Position numbers and translations under genes: made by a program. Below are positions 7,821 to 18,012 of a stretch of 19,155 bases of DNA, in pieces. Below the pieces are notes generated by a model. The model was given only the letters and a program-made list of their open reading frames with translations, made no database searches and was not told the origin of the DNA. Origin of the DNA: Burkholderia sp. HI2500 (lineage in GTDB: Bacteria; Pseudomonadota; Gammaproteobacteria; Burkholderiales; Burkholderiaceae); contig NZ_NKFL01000001.1 in the NCBI RefSeq assembly GCF_002223055.1, positions 1 to 19,155 on the forward strand, written 5' to 3'. Position 1 is the first letter of the stretch. Each line of letters begins with the position of its first letter.

Positions 7821-10800
7821 TTACTTCACCACCTCCATCAACTTACCGAAGTTGTCCACGACATCGTACTTCACGTTTTCCGACGCGTAGCCCCGATTAA
7901 TTTCTCTAAAGAACTCGCGAGCACACTTGATCTTGGTCTTCTCAATTTCTCGCAGCTCCATCGTGGACATGGAGCCTTTGGTCTCTGCGACGAAGTAGAT
8001 GTGCTTGACGCTTCCTTCCTTGAAGGCGACGGCCCAGTCGGGGTTGTAGTCGCCCACTGGAGTGGGGATCAGGAAGCCGCGCGGCAGCTTAGCGTAGACC
8101 ACAACCTCCTTTGCCGTGTCGAGCTCTTTCACGAACTCCTGTTCCACCTTCGAATCCGTCAGCACGTAATCGTAAATGTGCCGCTGGAGCTTGTTACCGG
8201 CCTTGCTGAAGTCCTGTTTGGTCTGTCCAGCGGTAAAGATGTCAAGGTCGAACTTGTCATCGACCGAGTCGTAGGCCAGATGCTCGATGATGACCGTGGC
8301 TTTCTGCTCGTTGATGAGCCGTATGGCCTCAGCAATGAAGCTTTCCGGGTTGGTCTTGAACTGCGCGAAAACCGCGACGTTGACTCCCTTGAGGACTTCG
8401 GCCACCGTCCGACGCGTCAGTTGTGTGCCTTCGGCCAGCTTGCCGATCAGATCGTACTTGACGGAGGAGTGGATTGAGTTCCGGTTGGTCTCGGTTTCTG
8501 TAGTCTTCAGCTCGAAGGCATTTCCGTTCTTCATTCCGTCGTAAGTGACGGCAGAAGCCTGCTCGCCGTGCTGAATCGTGTATTGCAGTGGAGTAACGCG
8601 CAGGCCGGAGTCGATTTCCTTTACTGCCTTCTCCACCAGCTCACTTGAGTCGAACTCGACGCTGTAAGCCGCCTTTCGATTGATGCGGCCCCACAACGCC
8701 TTAAACTCCTGCTTATCGAAGTTGGCGTTGAGAGGATTCTTCTTCGGACGGCGGTCGTCGCCGATGTCGGGCAACTGGCTGACGCTGAACACGCTGTCGA
8801 TGAGCTGCAGCACCTGCTCTGCGTGCGGCTTCAGGTCGTCTGGCATGTCGGCCAGCGTTCCTGCTTTCTTGGCATCGTGATACGCAGCGGTGATCTGATC
8901 TGAATTGTCGGTGTAGTCGTTCTTAACCAGATAGCGATAGATTTGCTTCGCCAGTTGCGGCGTCACCTGCAAATCGCCAGCCGTCGTCTTGAGCACCTTG
9001 CCGGTGAAGTATTCCTCGTTCGCCAACCGTGGTCGGGCGGATAGCGAATTGCTGATGTCATTTTGTAGCGCGGATACGAATTCCTTGTAGCTTTCGCTGG
9101 CAACCACAGTAAGCACGTTCACGTCGTGGACGATGGCTGGGTGGTCCATCCGGTCGCCCTGCTGGTTGACCGATAGGCGCAGGCCGCGCCCTACTTCCTG
9201 CCGCCGCGAGATGGTGTTGTCGCTGTGCTTGAGAGCGCAGATGACGAACACATTCGGGTTGTCCCAACCCTCGCGCAGCGCCGAGTGCGAGAAGATGAAG
9301 CGCACCGGCTCGGACAGCGATAGCAGCCGCTCCTTGTCTTTCAAGATCAAGTCATAGGCATCCACGTCGTCGGACAAGCCCGCGTTCTCGCCACGCGCCG
9401 CAACGTCCGAGTCCACCTGGCGCTTGCTCTTCTTGTCGATCGAGAAGTACCCGCTGTGCGTCTTGCTTGCAGGGATGCTTTTCAGGTACTTGACGTAGGC
9501 TGTTTCGTCCAGATCGAGCATCTCGTTCAGGTACTGGTTGTATTCTTCCTCGAAGATGCGAGCGTATTCACCCTTCTCGTCTGCCGCCATGTAATCGCGA
9601 TACTTGGCAACCTCGTCGATAAAGAACAGAGTCAGCACCTTCACGCCTTGCGGGAACAGCGCCTGCTCCTTGTCGAAGTGTGCCTTGACCGCCTCCCGAA
9701 TCTGAATACGACGCAGCGTCTCTTCAGTCACATCGCCCACAGCATCACCCACAGTCAGTTCCACCCCATTGGTGAAGCTCAGCGTGTCGGTATTGGCGTT
9801 GATGTCAGCCACAACGTAGCCGTCGCGGTACTGATCCAAGCCGCCGGACAGGTCGAAGAGATTATCGCCTTTACCGATCTTGCGAACGATGCGTTTTATA
9901 TTGCCACCAGCCAGCTTCTGCTCAACCTCAACCCGCGCCTCCGGTGGCCTTTTGCTCGAAATTTCGATGGATTGCAGGTAGAGGTAGCCCGCCGTGCCGG
10001 CCAGCCCTTTTACCGAGATACCGCGAACGGCAATCTTCTTCACCAGCTTTTGGTTGTAGGCGTCCAGCGCATCCAGCCGGTGAATCTTGTTGTGCGTAGT
10101 CTTATGGGTGGCCGAGTAGCGCAACACCATCAACGGCTTGAAATTCACCAGCGAATCCAGAGTCTTGCCGCCTTCCATCTTCTGCGGCTCGTCCAGAATT
10201 AGGATAGGTCGATTAGCGCTGATGACATCAATCGGCTTGCGTGACTGGAAGTCGTCCAACGCGTCATAGATGCGCCGGTTGTCCTTGCCGGTGGCATTGA
10301 ACGCTTGTACGTTGATGACCATCACGTTGATGCCTGCGTCCGACGAAAAGCTCTCCAAGTGGTGCAATTGCTTAGAGTTGTAGATAAAGAATCGCGCTTT
10401 TTTCTGGTAGCTCTCCAGAAAGTGCTCAGCAGTGATCTCCAGCGACTTGGCCACGCCCTCACGGATTGCAATGCTGGGCACTACGATGATGAACTTGCTC
10501 CAGCCGAACTGCTTGTTCATCTCGAAAATGGTCTTGATATAGCAGTAGGTCTTGCCCGTGCCCGTTTCCATCTCGATATCGAGGTTTACACGGGCGACCT
10601 TGGTCTTAACTAGCGCATCAGAGATCGGCAGGTTCTGCTGGCGTTGCACCTGTTGGATGTTGTCGAGCAGGGCCGTGTCCGAAAGCATCAGATCGGCGTT
10701 CTTGAACCCGGCTTCGGTAAATAAGCTGTCCATCCCCGTCTTGGCCTTGCCGAGATCGATACGGTAGCTCGTGGCTTCGGCAGACGCGGGCGGCTGCCCC

Positions 10801-10868
10801 TTGAAGCAGTCCACGACCGTCTGTACGGCAGCAGTCTGGTAGGACTGGGTCTTGAACTTCAGTTTCAT
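7821..10868 (-). CDS. res: Type III restriction enzyme Res subunit (helicase-nuclease)
   Basis: Res is the translocating and cleaving subunit of type III restriction-modification. With Mod it recognises an asymmetric site, uses ATP to communicate along DNA, and cuts about 25 bases away. The 1015-residue product has SF2 helicase motifs METGTGKT (100-107), DEPQ (226-229), SATH (252-255), the REGWDNPNV region (532-540) and motif VI QEVGRGLRL (557-565). The C-terminus holds a PD-(D/E)XK nuclease, with YNPDWAV (941-947, D944) and AETKG (961-965, E962 and K964). All key residues look intact. I chose ATG 10868, 11 bases after the mod stop, because GGGGTGG precedes it and the family starts MKLKF. An upstream ATG at 10889 overlaps mod. 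It is the last gene of the operon, and no good terminator is visible after it. Confidence 0.93.
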   Translation of the reverse strand: MKLKFKTQSYQTAAVQTVVDCFKGQPPASAEATSYRIDLGKAKTGMDSLFTEAGFKNADLMLSDTALLDNIQQVQRQQNLPISDALVKTKVARVNLDIEMETGTGKTYCYIKTIFEMNKQFGWSKFIIVVPSIAIREGVAKSLEITAEHFLESYQKKARFFIYNSKQLHHLESFSSDAGINVMVINVQAFNATGKDNRRIYDALDDFQSRKPIDVISANRPILILDEPQKMEGGKTLDSLVNFKPLMVLRYSATHKTTHNKIHRLDALDAYNQKLVKKIAVRGISVKGLAGTAGYLYLQSIEISSKRPPEARVEVEQKLAGGNIKRIVRKIGKGDNLFDLSGGLDQYRDGYVVADINANTDTLSFTNGVELTVGDAVGDVTEETLRRIQIREAVKAHFDKEQALFPQGVKVLTLFFIDEVAKYRDYMAADEKGEYARIFEEEYNQYLNEMLDLDETAYVKYLKSIPASKTHSGYFSIDKKSKRQVDSDVAARGENAGLSDDVDAYDLILKDKERLLSLSEPVRFIFSHSALREGWDNPNVFVICALKHSDNTISRRQEVGRGLRLSVNQQGDRMDHPAIVHDVNVLTVVASESYKEFVSALQNDISNSLSARPRLANEEYFTGKVLKTTAGDLQVTPQLAKQIYRYLVKNDYTDNSDQITAAYHDAKKAGTLADMPDDLKPHAEQVLQLIDSVFSVSQLPDIGDDRRPKKNPLNANFDKQEFKALWGRINRKAAYSVEFDSSELVEKAVKEIDSGLRVTPLQYTIQHGEQASAVTYDGMKNGNAFELKTTETETNRNSIHSSVKYDLIGKLAEGTQLTRRTVAEVLKGVNVAVFAQFKTNPESFIAEAIRLINEQKATVIIEHLAYDSVDDKFDLDIFTAGQTKQDFSKAGNKLQRHIYDYVLTDSKVEQEFVKELDTAKEVVVYAKLPRGFLIPTPVGDYNPDWAVAFKEGSVKHIYFVAETKGSMSTMELREIEKTKIKCAREFFREINRGYASENVKYDVVDNFGKLMEVVK

Positions 10869-17116: not shown

Positions 17117-18012
17117 ACGAGTGCACCTTTCACCTCCGCCACAAGGGCAACGCCGGGCGCTAAAGTCGCGCTCTCAACGCCGTAGAGCGTGGGAGTATTA
17201 CGAAGCCACAGATGGTGAGATAACGGGTCCATGCGATGGTCTGGGCTGGAATCGATGGACCAACGCCGCAGCAAGTAGCCCGCTAGAGCCGCTCGTGTCT
17301 TGATCCGCAACACCCCCTCACTCATCGCATAGTCGGCCTCAATCGCCTCAGGCCAGTGGGCACCTGGATGCGGCACCAGTTCCATATCCACGATCCGCGC
17401 CCATTGCTCGTCGGCAGCCAAGAGCTCATGCTGCTCCACCTCGCCATCCAGCTCTTGTACCTTGGTGATGCGGGTTATCACGAAATCGGAAAATCGTTGG
17501 CGCTCGCGGTCAAACGAACGAACGTGCCAGCGCAAACCGTTGTCGGCCAAAGCGACCGGTACGATGTCGCGGCACTTCTCGCCAGAAGACAAGGACAGAT
17601 AGTTAATTCGGATTGAACGTTTCGCGCACAGGGCTCGCGTGATGGTCGCAAGGACTCCCATGTCCGGACGCAGAAGCTGCCCCGGCCCTTCGCAAGGTGT
17701 TGCTTGCCTTAGACCCAATTCGAGCCCGTCTCCGAAACCATTTAGCAGCCAAGCCAATACACGTTCCGTACGAAACTCATAGACTGGCTTGAACCGGTTT
17801 GTCGGCCGGTAACAGCGAGCGACTGCGTCGTAAGCCAAGTTGTCAGCGGCGACCTCTCGGTAGATGCTCAGATCGCGAGACGCCGCGGCGGGTTTGATAC
17901 CAAACCGGGTCTCAATATCACCTCGCCGTAGCTCTCCGGTGAAAAAGGCCCGCAATTCTAAAAATGCCAGTCGCTCTCGCTGCGCTTGCGACACCCCGGT
18001 GGCTTCGATCAT
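17113..18012 (-). CDS. WYL-domain transcriptional regulator (BrxR/CapW-like)
   Basis: This 299-residue protein has an N-terminal winged helix-turn-helix (about 8-70, with RRGDIETRFGIKPAAASRDL at 29-48). A central WYL domain follows (about 115-195, with SIRINYLSLSSGE at 133-145 and the LRWHVRSFDRERQRF strand at 160-174), then a C-terminal WCX-type domain (about 205-295). Proteins of this layout, such as BrxR and CapW, repress defence operons by binding inverted repeats, and WYL is thought to sense a nucleic-acid or nucleotide signal. I chose ATG 18012 because GAGAGGG lies just upstream and the HTH starts here. The frame stays open to ATG 18093, but that start lies inside the inverted repeat. 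It is the first gene of the operon, so autoregulation of all six genes is likely. Confidence 0.85.
   Translation of the reverse strand: MIEATGVSQAQRERLAFLELRAFFTGELRRGDIETRFGIKPAAASRDLSIYREVAADNLAYDAVARCYRPTNRFKPVYEFRTERVLAWLLNGFGDGLELGLRQATPCEGPGQLLRPDMGVLATITRALCAKRSIRINYLSLSSGEKCRDIVPVALADNGLRWHVRSFDRERQRFSDFVITRITKVQELDGEVEQHELLAADEQWARIVDMELVPHPGAHWPEAIEADYAMSEGVLRIKTRAALAGYLLRRWSIDSSPDHRMDPLSHHLWLRNTPTLYGVESATLAPGVALVAEVKGALV

What the first reader, a model, noticed from the sequence alone, without database searches (positions are those of the whole stretch)
7821..18012. Six-gene WYL-led operon: type III R-M extended with a PLD-like helicase, DUF4391 and an unknown small protein
Seen: WYL regulator, 71-aa protein, SNF2-like helicase, DUF4391, Mod and Res run in one direction with overlaps or tiny gaps. 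Known: Mod plus Res alone make a complete type III system, and WYL regulators control BREX and CBASS loci. Inferred: the second helicase and DUF4391 make this more than an ordinary type III system, perhaps a separate translocase that senses or processes phage DNA marked by Mod. I recall helicase-DUF4391-Mod-Res neighbourhoods but no named, experimentally described system, so novelty is uncertain.
Basis: partly seen in the sequence, partly recalled or inferred. Interest (0 to 1): 0.75.

Follow-up and report, generated by a model that had tools for sequence, protein, structure and literature searches.

The report
Four-gene type III restriction system
A bacterial DNA-cutting defence system (type III restriction-modification) that travels with a fixed pair of extra genes, a DNA motor whose own cutting motif has been lost and a small partner of unknown fold; the pairing recurs in distant bacteria and an archaeon, yet its job is untested.

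Summary
An EcoP15I-class Mod and Res are preceded, on the same strand with 4-10 nt overlaps, by DUF4391 and an SNF2-type motor, under a BrxR/CapW-type WYL regulator. The 71-aa ORF has no homologue found and is probably not a conserved part. Motor-DUF4391-Mod-Res is a recurrent unit: all four genes in 62 of 62 DUF4391 genome loci with enough flanking DNA; in 299 sampled genomes, 18 of 19 with DUF4391 also have Res. Motor and DUF4391 touch or lie within 10 nt in 114 of 118 junctions; other defence genes insert on either side of Mod. Two-gene Mod-Res relatives are scattered through the Res tree, so the pair looks like a module gained or lost as a unit. The motor descends from PLD (HKD) motor-nucleases but lacks HxKx4D in 108 of 108. 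Closest print: Eco86II/BspHIV (Murray 2021), with an extra helicase of unknown function; Eco86II's motor is DrmD-like, its Res shows no BLASTP similarity and it has no DUF4391. Best reading: accessory dsDNA motor plus adaptor serving Mod-Res restriction; mechanism inferred. New variant of a known kind.

The parts
7821..10889 (-). Res, type III restriction subunit (1022 aa): SF2 motor plus PD-(D/E)XK-type endonuclease domain
   Evidence: PADLOC REase_III PDLC03647 E=0; Pfam ResIII and RE_endonuc PF19778; EcoP15I Res 4zcf_C E=2e-78
10880..12871 (-). Mod, type III DNA methyltransferase (663 aa), with hypervariable region around residues 271-330 (presumed target recognition)
   Evidence: PADLOC MTase_III PDLC03634 E=6e-220; EcoP15I Mod 4zcf_A E=4e-79 with DPPY and DFFAGS aligned; conservation falls to 0.06-0.12 there (columns that are mostly gaps scored 0)
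12868..13557 (-). DUF4391 protein (229 aa): alpha/beta domain plus C-terminal helical hairpin; proposed adaptor of the motor
   Evidence: PF14335 E=3.5e-55; AlphaFold2 mean pLDDT 91; no Foldseek match at E<=0.001
13554..16844 (-). SNF2-type motor with degenerate PLD-like N-terminus (1096 aa; the ORF runs to 16889)
   Evidence: SNF2-rel_dom and Helicase_C; PADLOC C3a139 'HKD+Snf2' E=1.1e-120; HxKx4D in 0 of 108 family members, Walker A, DESH and motif VI patterns in 108 of 108
16901..17116 (-). 71-aa ORF, doubtful; in a 268-bp stretch between WYL and motor that WYL-bearing relatives such as L002, L072 and L079 lack
   Evidence: No homologue found; stretch single-copy in own genome; WYL abuts motor in those relatives
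17113..18012 (-). WYL regulator of the BrxR/CapW family (ORF runs to 18093); optional part of the locus
   Evidence: 7qfz_A E=1e-76, CapW 9c5g E=4e-40, BrxR 7t8k E=3e-20; WYL in 9 of 68 genome loci
18067..18119 (.). Candidate operator/promoter: imperfect inverted repeat with an inner GATACCGTATC
   Evidence: the GATA...TATC pattern was found near the start of none of 15 other WYL ORFs
5903..7645 (+). Neighbour: GmrSD_N (DUF262) protein, convergent with Res; recurrent companion, not counted as core
   Evidence: PF03235 E=2e-31; HEC-05; same family beside the cassette in L179, L032, L095

Best explanation
This is an EcoP15I-class type III restriction-modification system, complete by sequence, extended by a fixed two-gene accessory module. 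SHOWN by sequence: Mod and Res keep their catalytic motifs; the SNF2 motor keeps its ATPase motifs but has lost the HKD nuclease motif of its relatives; motor and DUF4391 are nearly inseparable; the pair is strongly associated with Mod-Res, while Mod-Res also occurs without the pair. INFERRED: the motor and DUF4391 form one complex, DUF4391 being the adaptor. That complex acts on DNA that Mod-Res has engaged as unmethylated, driving along the duplex or remodelling Mod-Res or roadblocks there, while Res does the cutting. This would widen restriction, for example to phage DNA with a single site, only head-to-tail sites, or protein-covered sites, where a classical type III enzyme stalls. The WYL protein is a BrxR-like optional repressor.
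For: Order and linkage: all four genes in 62 of 62 genome loci, 13 of 13 viral loci and 11 of 11 phylum-sample loci with enough flanking DNA, and in 6 of 6 chosen plasmid loci (one with only a piece of Res), including an archaeal and an actinobacterial plasmid. Sample of 299 genomes: Res in 18 of 19 genomes with DUF4391, DUF4391 in 16 of 17 with the motor. Junction motor|DUF4391 touching or within 10 nt in 114 of 118, while both neighbouring junctions take inserts. Motor, DUF4391 and Res distances run in parallel (Spearman 0.93 motor-DUF4391, 0.90 motor-Res) but the Mod variable positions hardly (0.30), in 86 loci: the motor is not tied to one recognition sequence. No HKD motif in 108 of 108, ATPase motifs in 108 of 108, so the cutting is best assigned to Res. 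A different, DrmD-like SNF2 motor is linked to type III systems in Eco86II and E. coli STEC309, which suggests that such motors were recruited more than once.
Against: Murray et al. found the analogous Eco86II helicase unnecessary for methylation and saw no peptide of it in the fraction that cut DNA, so such motors may not be part of the core nuclease; that helicase is of another family. No contact between motor/DUF4391 and Mod-Res was modelled or measured. Two-gene relatives persist (at least 6 label changes forced on the Res tree), so the pair is not needed for the core. DUF4391 has no assigned fold and the motor model is poor (pLDDT 61). The distance correlations do not remove shared host ancestry, and the variable positions were picked as the less conserved ones of the same alignment.
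Confidence: 0.42

Rival explanations
1. Backup or guard arm: motor and DUF4391 do not help Mod-Res cut, but respond when Mod-Res is blocked or overwhelmed, by stalling phage replication or triggering cell death.
For: Relatives of the locus are platforms for such effectors: Schlafen-AlbA, Fic, RhuM, OLD-TOPRIM, DUF2130, HerA, SIR2 and YhcG/DUF1016 proteins sit in the two slots. The Eco86II helicase was not seen with the cutting activity.
Against: Motor and DUF4391 carry no recognised toxic or nuclease domain (HKD lost) and, unlike cargo, are constant across four-gene loci.
Confidence: 0.24
2. Self-protection: the pair removes or resets Mod-Res on the cell's own temporarily unmethylated DNA (after replication or repair), limiting self-cutting.
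For: SNF2 proteins commonly remodel protein-DNA complexes (established knowledge; best PDB sequence kin include SMARCA-type SNF2, ISW1 and RapA); Mod-Res survives without the pair, which fits a modulator.
Against: Two-gene systems manage without it; nothing here shows toxicity of Mod-Res alone.
Confidence: 0.14
3. Two systems side by side: motor and DUF4391 are an independent defence that merely keeps a fixed place beside Mod-Res.
For: Two-gene Mod-Res relatives exist (L157, L173, L174), so Mod-Res does not need the pair to persist.
Against: DUF4391 was found without Res in only 1 of 19 genomes (G022/L049, cut off at a contig start); among loci where the motor is seen and enough downstream DNA is held, none lacked Mod or Res.
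Confidence: 0.12
4. Ordinary two-gene type III system with passenger genes.
For: Mod and Res are complete by motif.
Against: Conserved linkage and pairing.
Confidence: 0.04

Closest known systems
EcoP15I / EcoPI type III restriction-modification (4zcf)
   Same: Mod and Res homologous over large parts with aligned catalytic motifs; Mod has a hypervariable region
   Different: Such systems are described as mod and res only (Murray introduction); here a motor and DUF4391 precede mod, and inserts beside mod are common in relatives
Eco86II and BspHIV, 'third group' of m4C type III systems (Murray et al. 2021, PMC8259958)
   Same: An extra helicase-like ATPase gene 5' of mod, of unknown function, close to Mod-Res in more than 500 genomes
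   Different: Eco86II locus as I identify it by gene order (NCTC86 5046030-5055447; the paper says five of its six strains, all but Acinetobacter species H, had one putative type III system): motor DrmD-like (PDLC02619 E=1e-199), best segment only 29% identical to ours over 166 residues; Mod 1040 aa; Res without BLASTP similarity; no gene between motor and Mod. BspHIV was read about only
E. coli STEC309 type III locus (L172)
   Same: Motor - partner - Mod - Res order; Mod 36% and Res 35% identical to the window's
   Different: Motor is the Eco86II/DrmD kind (46-47% to Eco86II) and the partner is a DUF262/DUF1524 protein in the place of DUF4391
HKD+SNF2 motor-nucleases (PADLOC C3a139; L168)
   Same: Same motor family (L168: 40% identical to the window's motor)
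   Different: L168 keeps HxKx4D and a PLDc_2 match, and sits beside an Eco57I-like methylase, not DUF4391-Mod-Res
BrxR/CapW WYL regulators (Picton et al. 2022, PMC9122601)
   Same: WYL gene directly upstream of a defence operon, 7qfz E=1e-76; type III plus type IV restriction is among the commoner BrxR-linked clusters in that paper
   Different: Regulation of this four-gene cassette is untested; most relatives lack WYL

Membership tests
Type III restriction-modification (EcoP15I class) | Beta-class Mod with DPPY and AdoMet motif | tested here: met
   DPPY and DFFAGS aligned to EcoP15I Mod, E=6e-79
Type III restriction-modification (EcoP15I class) | Res with SF2 ATPase motifs and PD-(D/E)XK nuclease | tested here: met
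   RE_endonuc PF19778 117.8 bits; GTGKT, DEPQ and C-terminal domain aligned to EcoP15I Res
Type III restriction-modification (EcoP15I class) | Hypervariable target recognition region in Mod | tested here: met
   Conservation 0.06-0.12 at residues 271-330; among 499 pairs with motors 85-98% identical, 473 have under 30% identity in the variable positions (positions picked as less conserved)
Type III restriction-modification (EcoP15I class) | One-strand methylation; two-site dependent cleavage about 25-27 bp from the site | not testable with these tools
   Needs methylome sequencing and digestion
Murray third group (Eco86II) | Extra helicase-like ATPase gene 5' of mod | tested here: met
   Motor lies 5' of mod, but with DUF4391 between
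Murray third group (Eco86II) | Motor and Res homologous to Eco86II's over their length | tested here: not met
   Motor similarity confined to ATPase segments; Res best E=13 by BLASTP
HKD (phospholipase D) helicase-nucleases | HxKx4D catalytic motif in the N-terminal domain | tested here: not met
   0 of 108 family members, first 280 residues; present in outgroup L168
DISARM | DrmA, DrmB and DrmC beside the SNF2 protein DrmD | tested here: not met
   Motor matches DrmD only partly (E=1.5e-33); none of 8 window proteins is best matched by DrmA, DrmB or DrmC. Gene set recalled
BrxR/CapW regulators | wHTH-WYL protein similar over its length to solved members | tested here: met
   7qfz residues 10-292 of 295, E=1e-76
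BrxR/CapW regulators | Binds inverted repeats upstream of its gene | tested here: inconclusive
   Imperfect inverted repeat at 18067-18119; the simple pattern used was not seen at 15 other WYL genes; no binding data

The most novel reading that the evidence does not exclude
The motor-DUF4391 pair turns a type III enzyme, which normally needs two inverted sites, into a machine that can act from a single engaged site by directional dsDNA translocation, DUF4391 being a new adaptor fold that couples an SNF2 motor to Mod2Res. Nature has made the same step at least twice, with an HKD-derived motor here and a DrmD-like motor in Eco86II and STEC309.
Probability: 0.22. Interest if true: 0.75.

Novelty: new variant of a known kind. 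Interest (0 to 1): 0.52.

Why it matters
An extra motor beside type III Mod-Res was noted in 2021 with function unknown. This work shows a second, different motor in the same place, names its constant partner (DUF4391), shows that its ancestral nuclease motif is gone, and shows that the pair is gained or lost against a Mod-Res background. Homologous four-gene and two-gene systems exist as natural comparison sets, so what the motor adds to restriction can be tested directly. The cassette also has two insertion slots that hold other defence genes in relatives, a place to look for new ones.

Tried and rejected
Chance neighbourhood: rejected. DISARM: the motor's best NCBIfam score is DrmD, E=1.5e-41, but 143 bits against a cut-off of 610, and no other DISARM gene leads any match. 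Active PLD nuclease: rejected, HxKx4D absent. Same system as Eco86II: rejected after finding a motor-Mod-Res locus in NCTC86; only 49 kb of that chromosome was read, so its identity as Eco86II rests on gene order and on the paper's statement that all its strains but one had a single putative type III system. 71-aa ORF as a part: no support.

DUF4391 fold: Foldseek gave nothing at E<=0.001; VIA-align rows cover mainly the helical hairpin, residues about 169-229, so the alpha/beta domain is barely tested. The motor model is poor (pLDDT 60.6) and was not searched. Profile search of DUF4391 against PDB sequences: best E 0.34, not taken up.

Literature: DUF4391 in 1 paper of the held open-access library (the passage seen is an enrichment table), PF14335 in none. 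The listings showed no title or abstract start describing this four-gene unit; led to Murray et al. Preprints and most subscription papers are not held. PMC8259958: outline, main text parts 1-3 of 4 and the Discussion read. PMC12839542: passages and section 28. PMC9122601, PMC12255303, PMC12707154, PMC7784981: passages only. Other papers: listings only.

Limits of the counts. Genome loci are the best 80 of 437 relatives and, like the viral, plasmid and phylum sets, were found through DUF4391, so 'motor next to DUF4391' is conditional on DUF4391; the motor- and Res-anchored controls are, in which at most two candidates per genome were scored, so their totals may be low. The profiles used for labelling were built from these same loci. 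In one search, 5 of 22 viral loci and 1 of 20 phylum loci were dropped for no DUF4391 match over 100 bits. Some loci are near-copies or the same contig met twice (L028/L029, L034/L035; L053/L140 share a 39010-base contig), and they were not removed. Plasmid loci read: 6 of 54 records with a match. In L007 Res is a short piece. In one search a motor split into pieces (as in L068, L117, L123, L137) counts by its nearest piece, and overlapping ORF starts count as touching. Cargo: 59 of 106 candidate ORFs were scanned (near-duplicates and short ORFs left out). The Res tree uses 42 chosen rows: 32 four-gene, 8 two-gene (6 of 16 Res loci from genomes without DUF4391 fetched, plus L173 and L174) and 2 other (L172; L155, which has another SNF2-like ORF beside it); the 9 other loci of that kind were left out, mostly cut by contig ends or partial. 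L044 and L046 were labelled four-gene on DUF4391 although the motor is cut off by the contig. Long branches L164, L039 and L173 are insecure; L150 has only a weak Mod match; 23 of 500 label shuffles needed as few changes for the four-gene label.

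
Full report
WHAT IS IN THE WINDOW. dnaA, dnaN and gyrB open the window on the plus strand (ORFs; names recognised from recall), followed by a GmrSD_N (DUF262) gene at 5903-7645. The six ORFs of the finding lie on the minus strand at 7821-18093, and a 5S rRNA gene is at 19039-19151. G+C drops from 62-67% in the first 5 kb to 53-59% in the rest, which fits acquired DNA. The genome has 8.26 Mb in 27 contigs; the nearest named DUF4391 relatives are from Burkholderia, so the host is probably of that family.

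THE GENES. Res and Mod are EcoP15I-class: E=2e-78 and 4e-79 to the solved EcoP15I subunits, with DPPY, DFFAGS, GTGKT, DEPQ and the C-terminal nuclease domain aligned. DUF4391 is a clear PF14335 member. The motor has SNF2 and Helicase_C domains; PADLOC's best model is C3a139 'HKD+Snf2'. WYL is of the BrxR/CapW family. Overlaps of 4, 4 and 10 nt join motor, DUF4391, Mod and Res. The motor, DUF4391, Mod and Res have the lengths of their relatives.

THE UNIT IS REAL. Relatives of DUF4391 were collected from species genomes (80 best of 437), viral contigs, plasmids and a 299-genome sample of the phylum. Counting only loci with enough flanking DNA, the motor lies upstream in 80 of 80 genome loci, Mod downstream in 70 of 70, Res in 62 of 62, all four in 62 of 62; viral loci 17 of 17, 14 of 14, 13 of 13, 13 of 13; phylum loci 15 of 15, 14 of 15, 12 of 13, 11 of 11; six chosen plasmids 6 of 6. 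The one exception, L049, has DUF4391 at a contig start, so what lies upstream is unknown, and mostly opposite-strand ORFs after it. The plasmid set includes Mycolicibacterium and the archaeon Methanomethylovorans. With searches anchored on each protein, DUF4391 occurs in 19 of 299 genomes, the motor in 17, Res in 36; DUF4391 and Res share 18 genomes, DUF4391 and motor 16 (P about 5e-18 and 1e-22, not corrected for kinship). The motor without DUF4391 (G071, L168) sits in another context and keeps the HKD motif.

MODULARITY. Motor and DUF4391 touch or lie within 10 nt in 114 of 118 junctions, the other four being 355-590 bp apart. By contrast, more than 600 bp separates DUF4391 from Mod in 38 of 117 loci and Mod from Res in 34 of 106 (summed; up to 6.35 kb). 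These slots hold YhcG/DUF1016 nucleases (8 of 59 scanned proteins), Schlafen-AlbA proteins (8), DUF2130 (5), HerA-type (5), OLD-like TOPRIM (4), SIR2 (4), UvrD-type (4), Fic (3) and RhuM (2) (PADLOC). Both slots are empty in the window. Two-gene Mod-Res systems without the pair are scattered in the Res tree: at least 6 label changes are forced by well-supported branches. An example is L157, where lpxK and DUF455 genes lie upstream of Mod instead. The label shuffles show only weak clustering, so I read this as repeated gain or loss, direction unknown.

WHAT VARIES AND WHAT DOES NOT. In 86 loci with four full-length proteins, pairwise distances of motor, DUF4391 and Res run in parallel (Spearman 0.93, 0.90, 0.89), Mod core less (0.72-0.73), Mod variable positions weakly (0.29-0.31); none of 200 permutations reached any of these, but shared ancestry is not removed. 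Among 499 pairs with motors 85-98% identical, the median identity is 0.71 for DUF4391, 0.82 for Res, 0.74 for the Mod core and 0.19 for the Mod variable positions, which were picked as the less conserved ones. Specificity thus seems to be exchanged while motor and Res stay. That argues that the pair does not read the recognition sequence.

THE MOTOR IS PROBABLY NUCLEASE-DEAD. The N-terminus is related to PLD-like domains: L168, a relative at 40% identity, has HGKLIHID and a PLDc_2 match. In 108 of 108 members of the window's motor family HxKx4D is absent from the first 280 residues, whereas GxGKT, DESH and QRxGRxDR are present in 108 of 108.

RELATION TO PRINT. Murray et al. 2021 described m4C type III systems; Eco86II and BspHIV have an extra helicase-like ATPase 5' of mod, not required for methylation and not seen by mass spectrometry in the cutting fraction (Eco86II), role unclear. 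In NCTC86 I found a locus of that layout: SNF2 protein 963 aa, Mod 1040 aa, Res 1126 aa, no gene between motor and Mod. Its motor is DrmD-like and similar to ours only in ATPase segments; its Res has no BLASTP similarity to ours. In E. coli STEC309 the same DrmD-like kind of motor (46-47% to Eco86II's) is paired with a DUF262/DUF1524 protein in front of a Mod-Res that is 35-36% identical to ours. So SNF2-type motors of two kinds are joined to type III enzymes, with different partners; that these were separate recruitments is an inference.

HOW IT MOST LIKELY WORKS. Mod methylates the host at its site; Res with Mod cuts unmethylated DNA (established for EcoP15I; inferred here). The motor, lacking its own nuclease motif, most likely uses ATP to move along or remodel duplex DNA (SNF2 family knowledge), with DUF4391 as its constant partner, in support of Mod-Res restriction. 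Which step it supports is not shown. The analogous Eco86II helicase was not found with the cutting activity, so a role after engagement (backup, phage-protein removal, single-site action) or in self-protection stays open. The window copy is probably regulated by the BrxR-like protein, with an inverted repeat and a promoter-like site at 18067-18119, a weak prediction (one promoter-like site found where shuffles give 0.9).

VERDICT. It is a new variant of type III restriction-modification, close in idea but not in genes to the Murray third group, with an undescribed constant partner. I did not find this four-gene unit described in the searches named under Tried and rejected.

Noticed in passing
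window 5903-7645; L179:6025-7818; L032:16787-18646; L095:8269-10128; L172:5398-7503: GmrSD_N/DUF262 proteins sit beside such cassettes in different places: convergent in the window, overlapping the motor ORF start in L179, right after Res in L032 and L095, and in the place of DUF4391 in E. coli STEC309.
   Followed up: partly
window 5521-19038; L179; L192: Downstream of gyrB looks like a hotspot: the only two of 65 genus genomes with DUF4391 both carry the cassette there, in opposite orientation, and L192 has another Mod-Res about 8 kb past gyrB; gyrB was found in 8 of 20 fetched contig starts, with differing genes after it.
   Followed up: partly
L002, L028, L062-L141 (slots between DUF4391 and Mod, and Mod and Res): Two insertion slots of this cassette carry many known defence-type genes in relatives; unassigned cargo there may hold new systems.
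   Followed up: partly
L168:7929-15209: A relative of the motor with intact HKD motif lies near an Eco57I-like/type IIG-like methylase ORF that may be split.
   Followed up: partly
G000:C2:14072-17014 (L156): The window's genome has a second, 35% identical Res with an endonuclease domain; no Mod was recognised in the 18.9 kb around it.
   Followed up: partly
window 18067-18119: Imperfect inverted repeat with inner GATACCGTATC over a promoter-like site upstream of the WYL gene.
   Followed up: partly
window 18464-18796: 110-aa ORF between the WYL gene and 5S rRNA; recalls SymE-like proteins, but no Pfam, PADLOC or NCBIfam match; a relative occurs downstream of gyrB in L189.
   Followed up: no
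L171:4425-13742: A distant four-gene locus in E. coli MB64 has a small HTH gene annotated MAD1 directly before the motor, suggesting that regulators are interchangeable.
   Followed up: no
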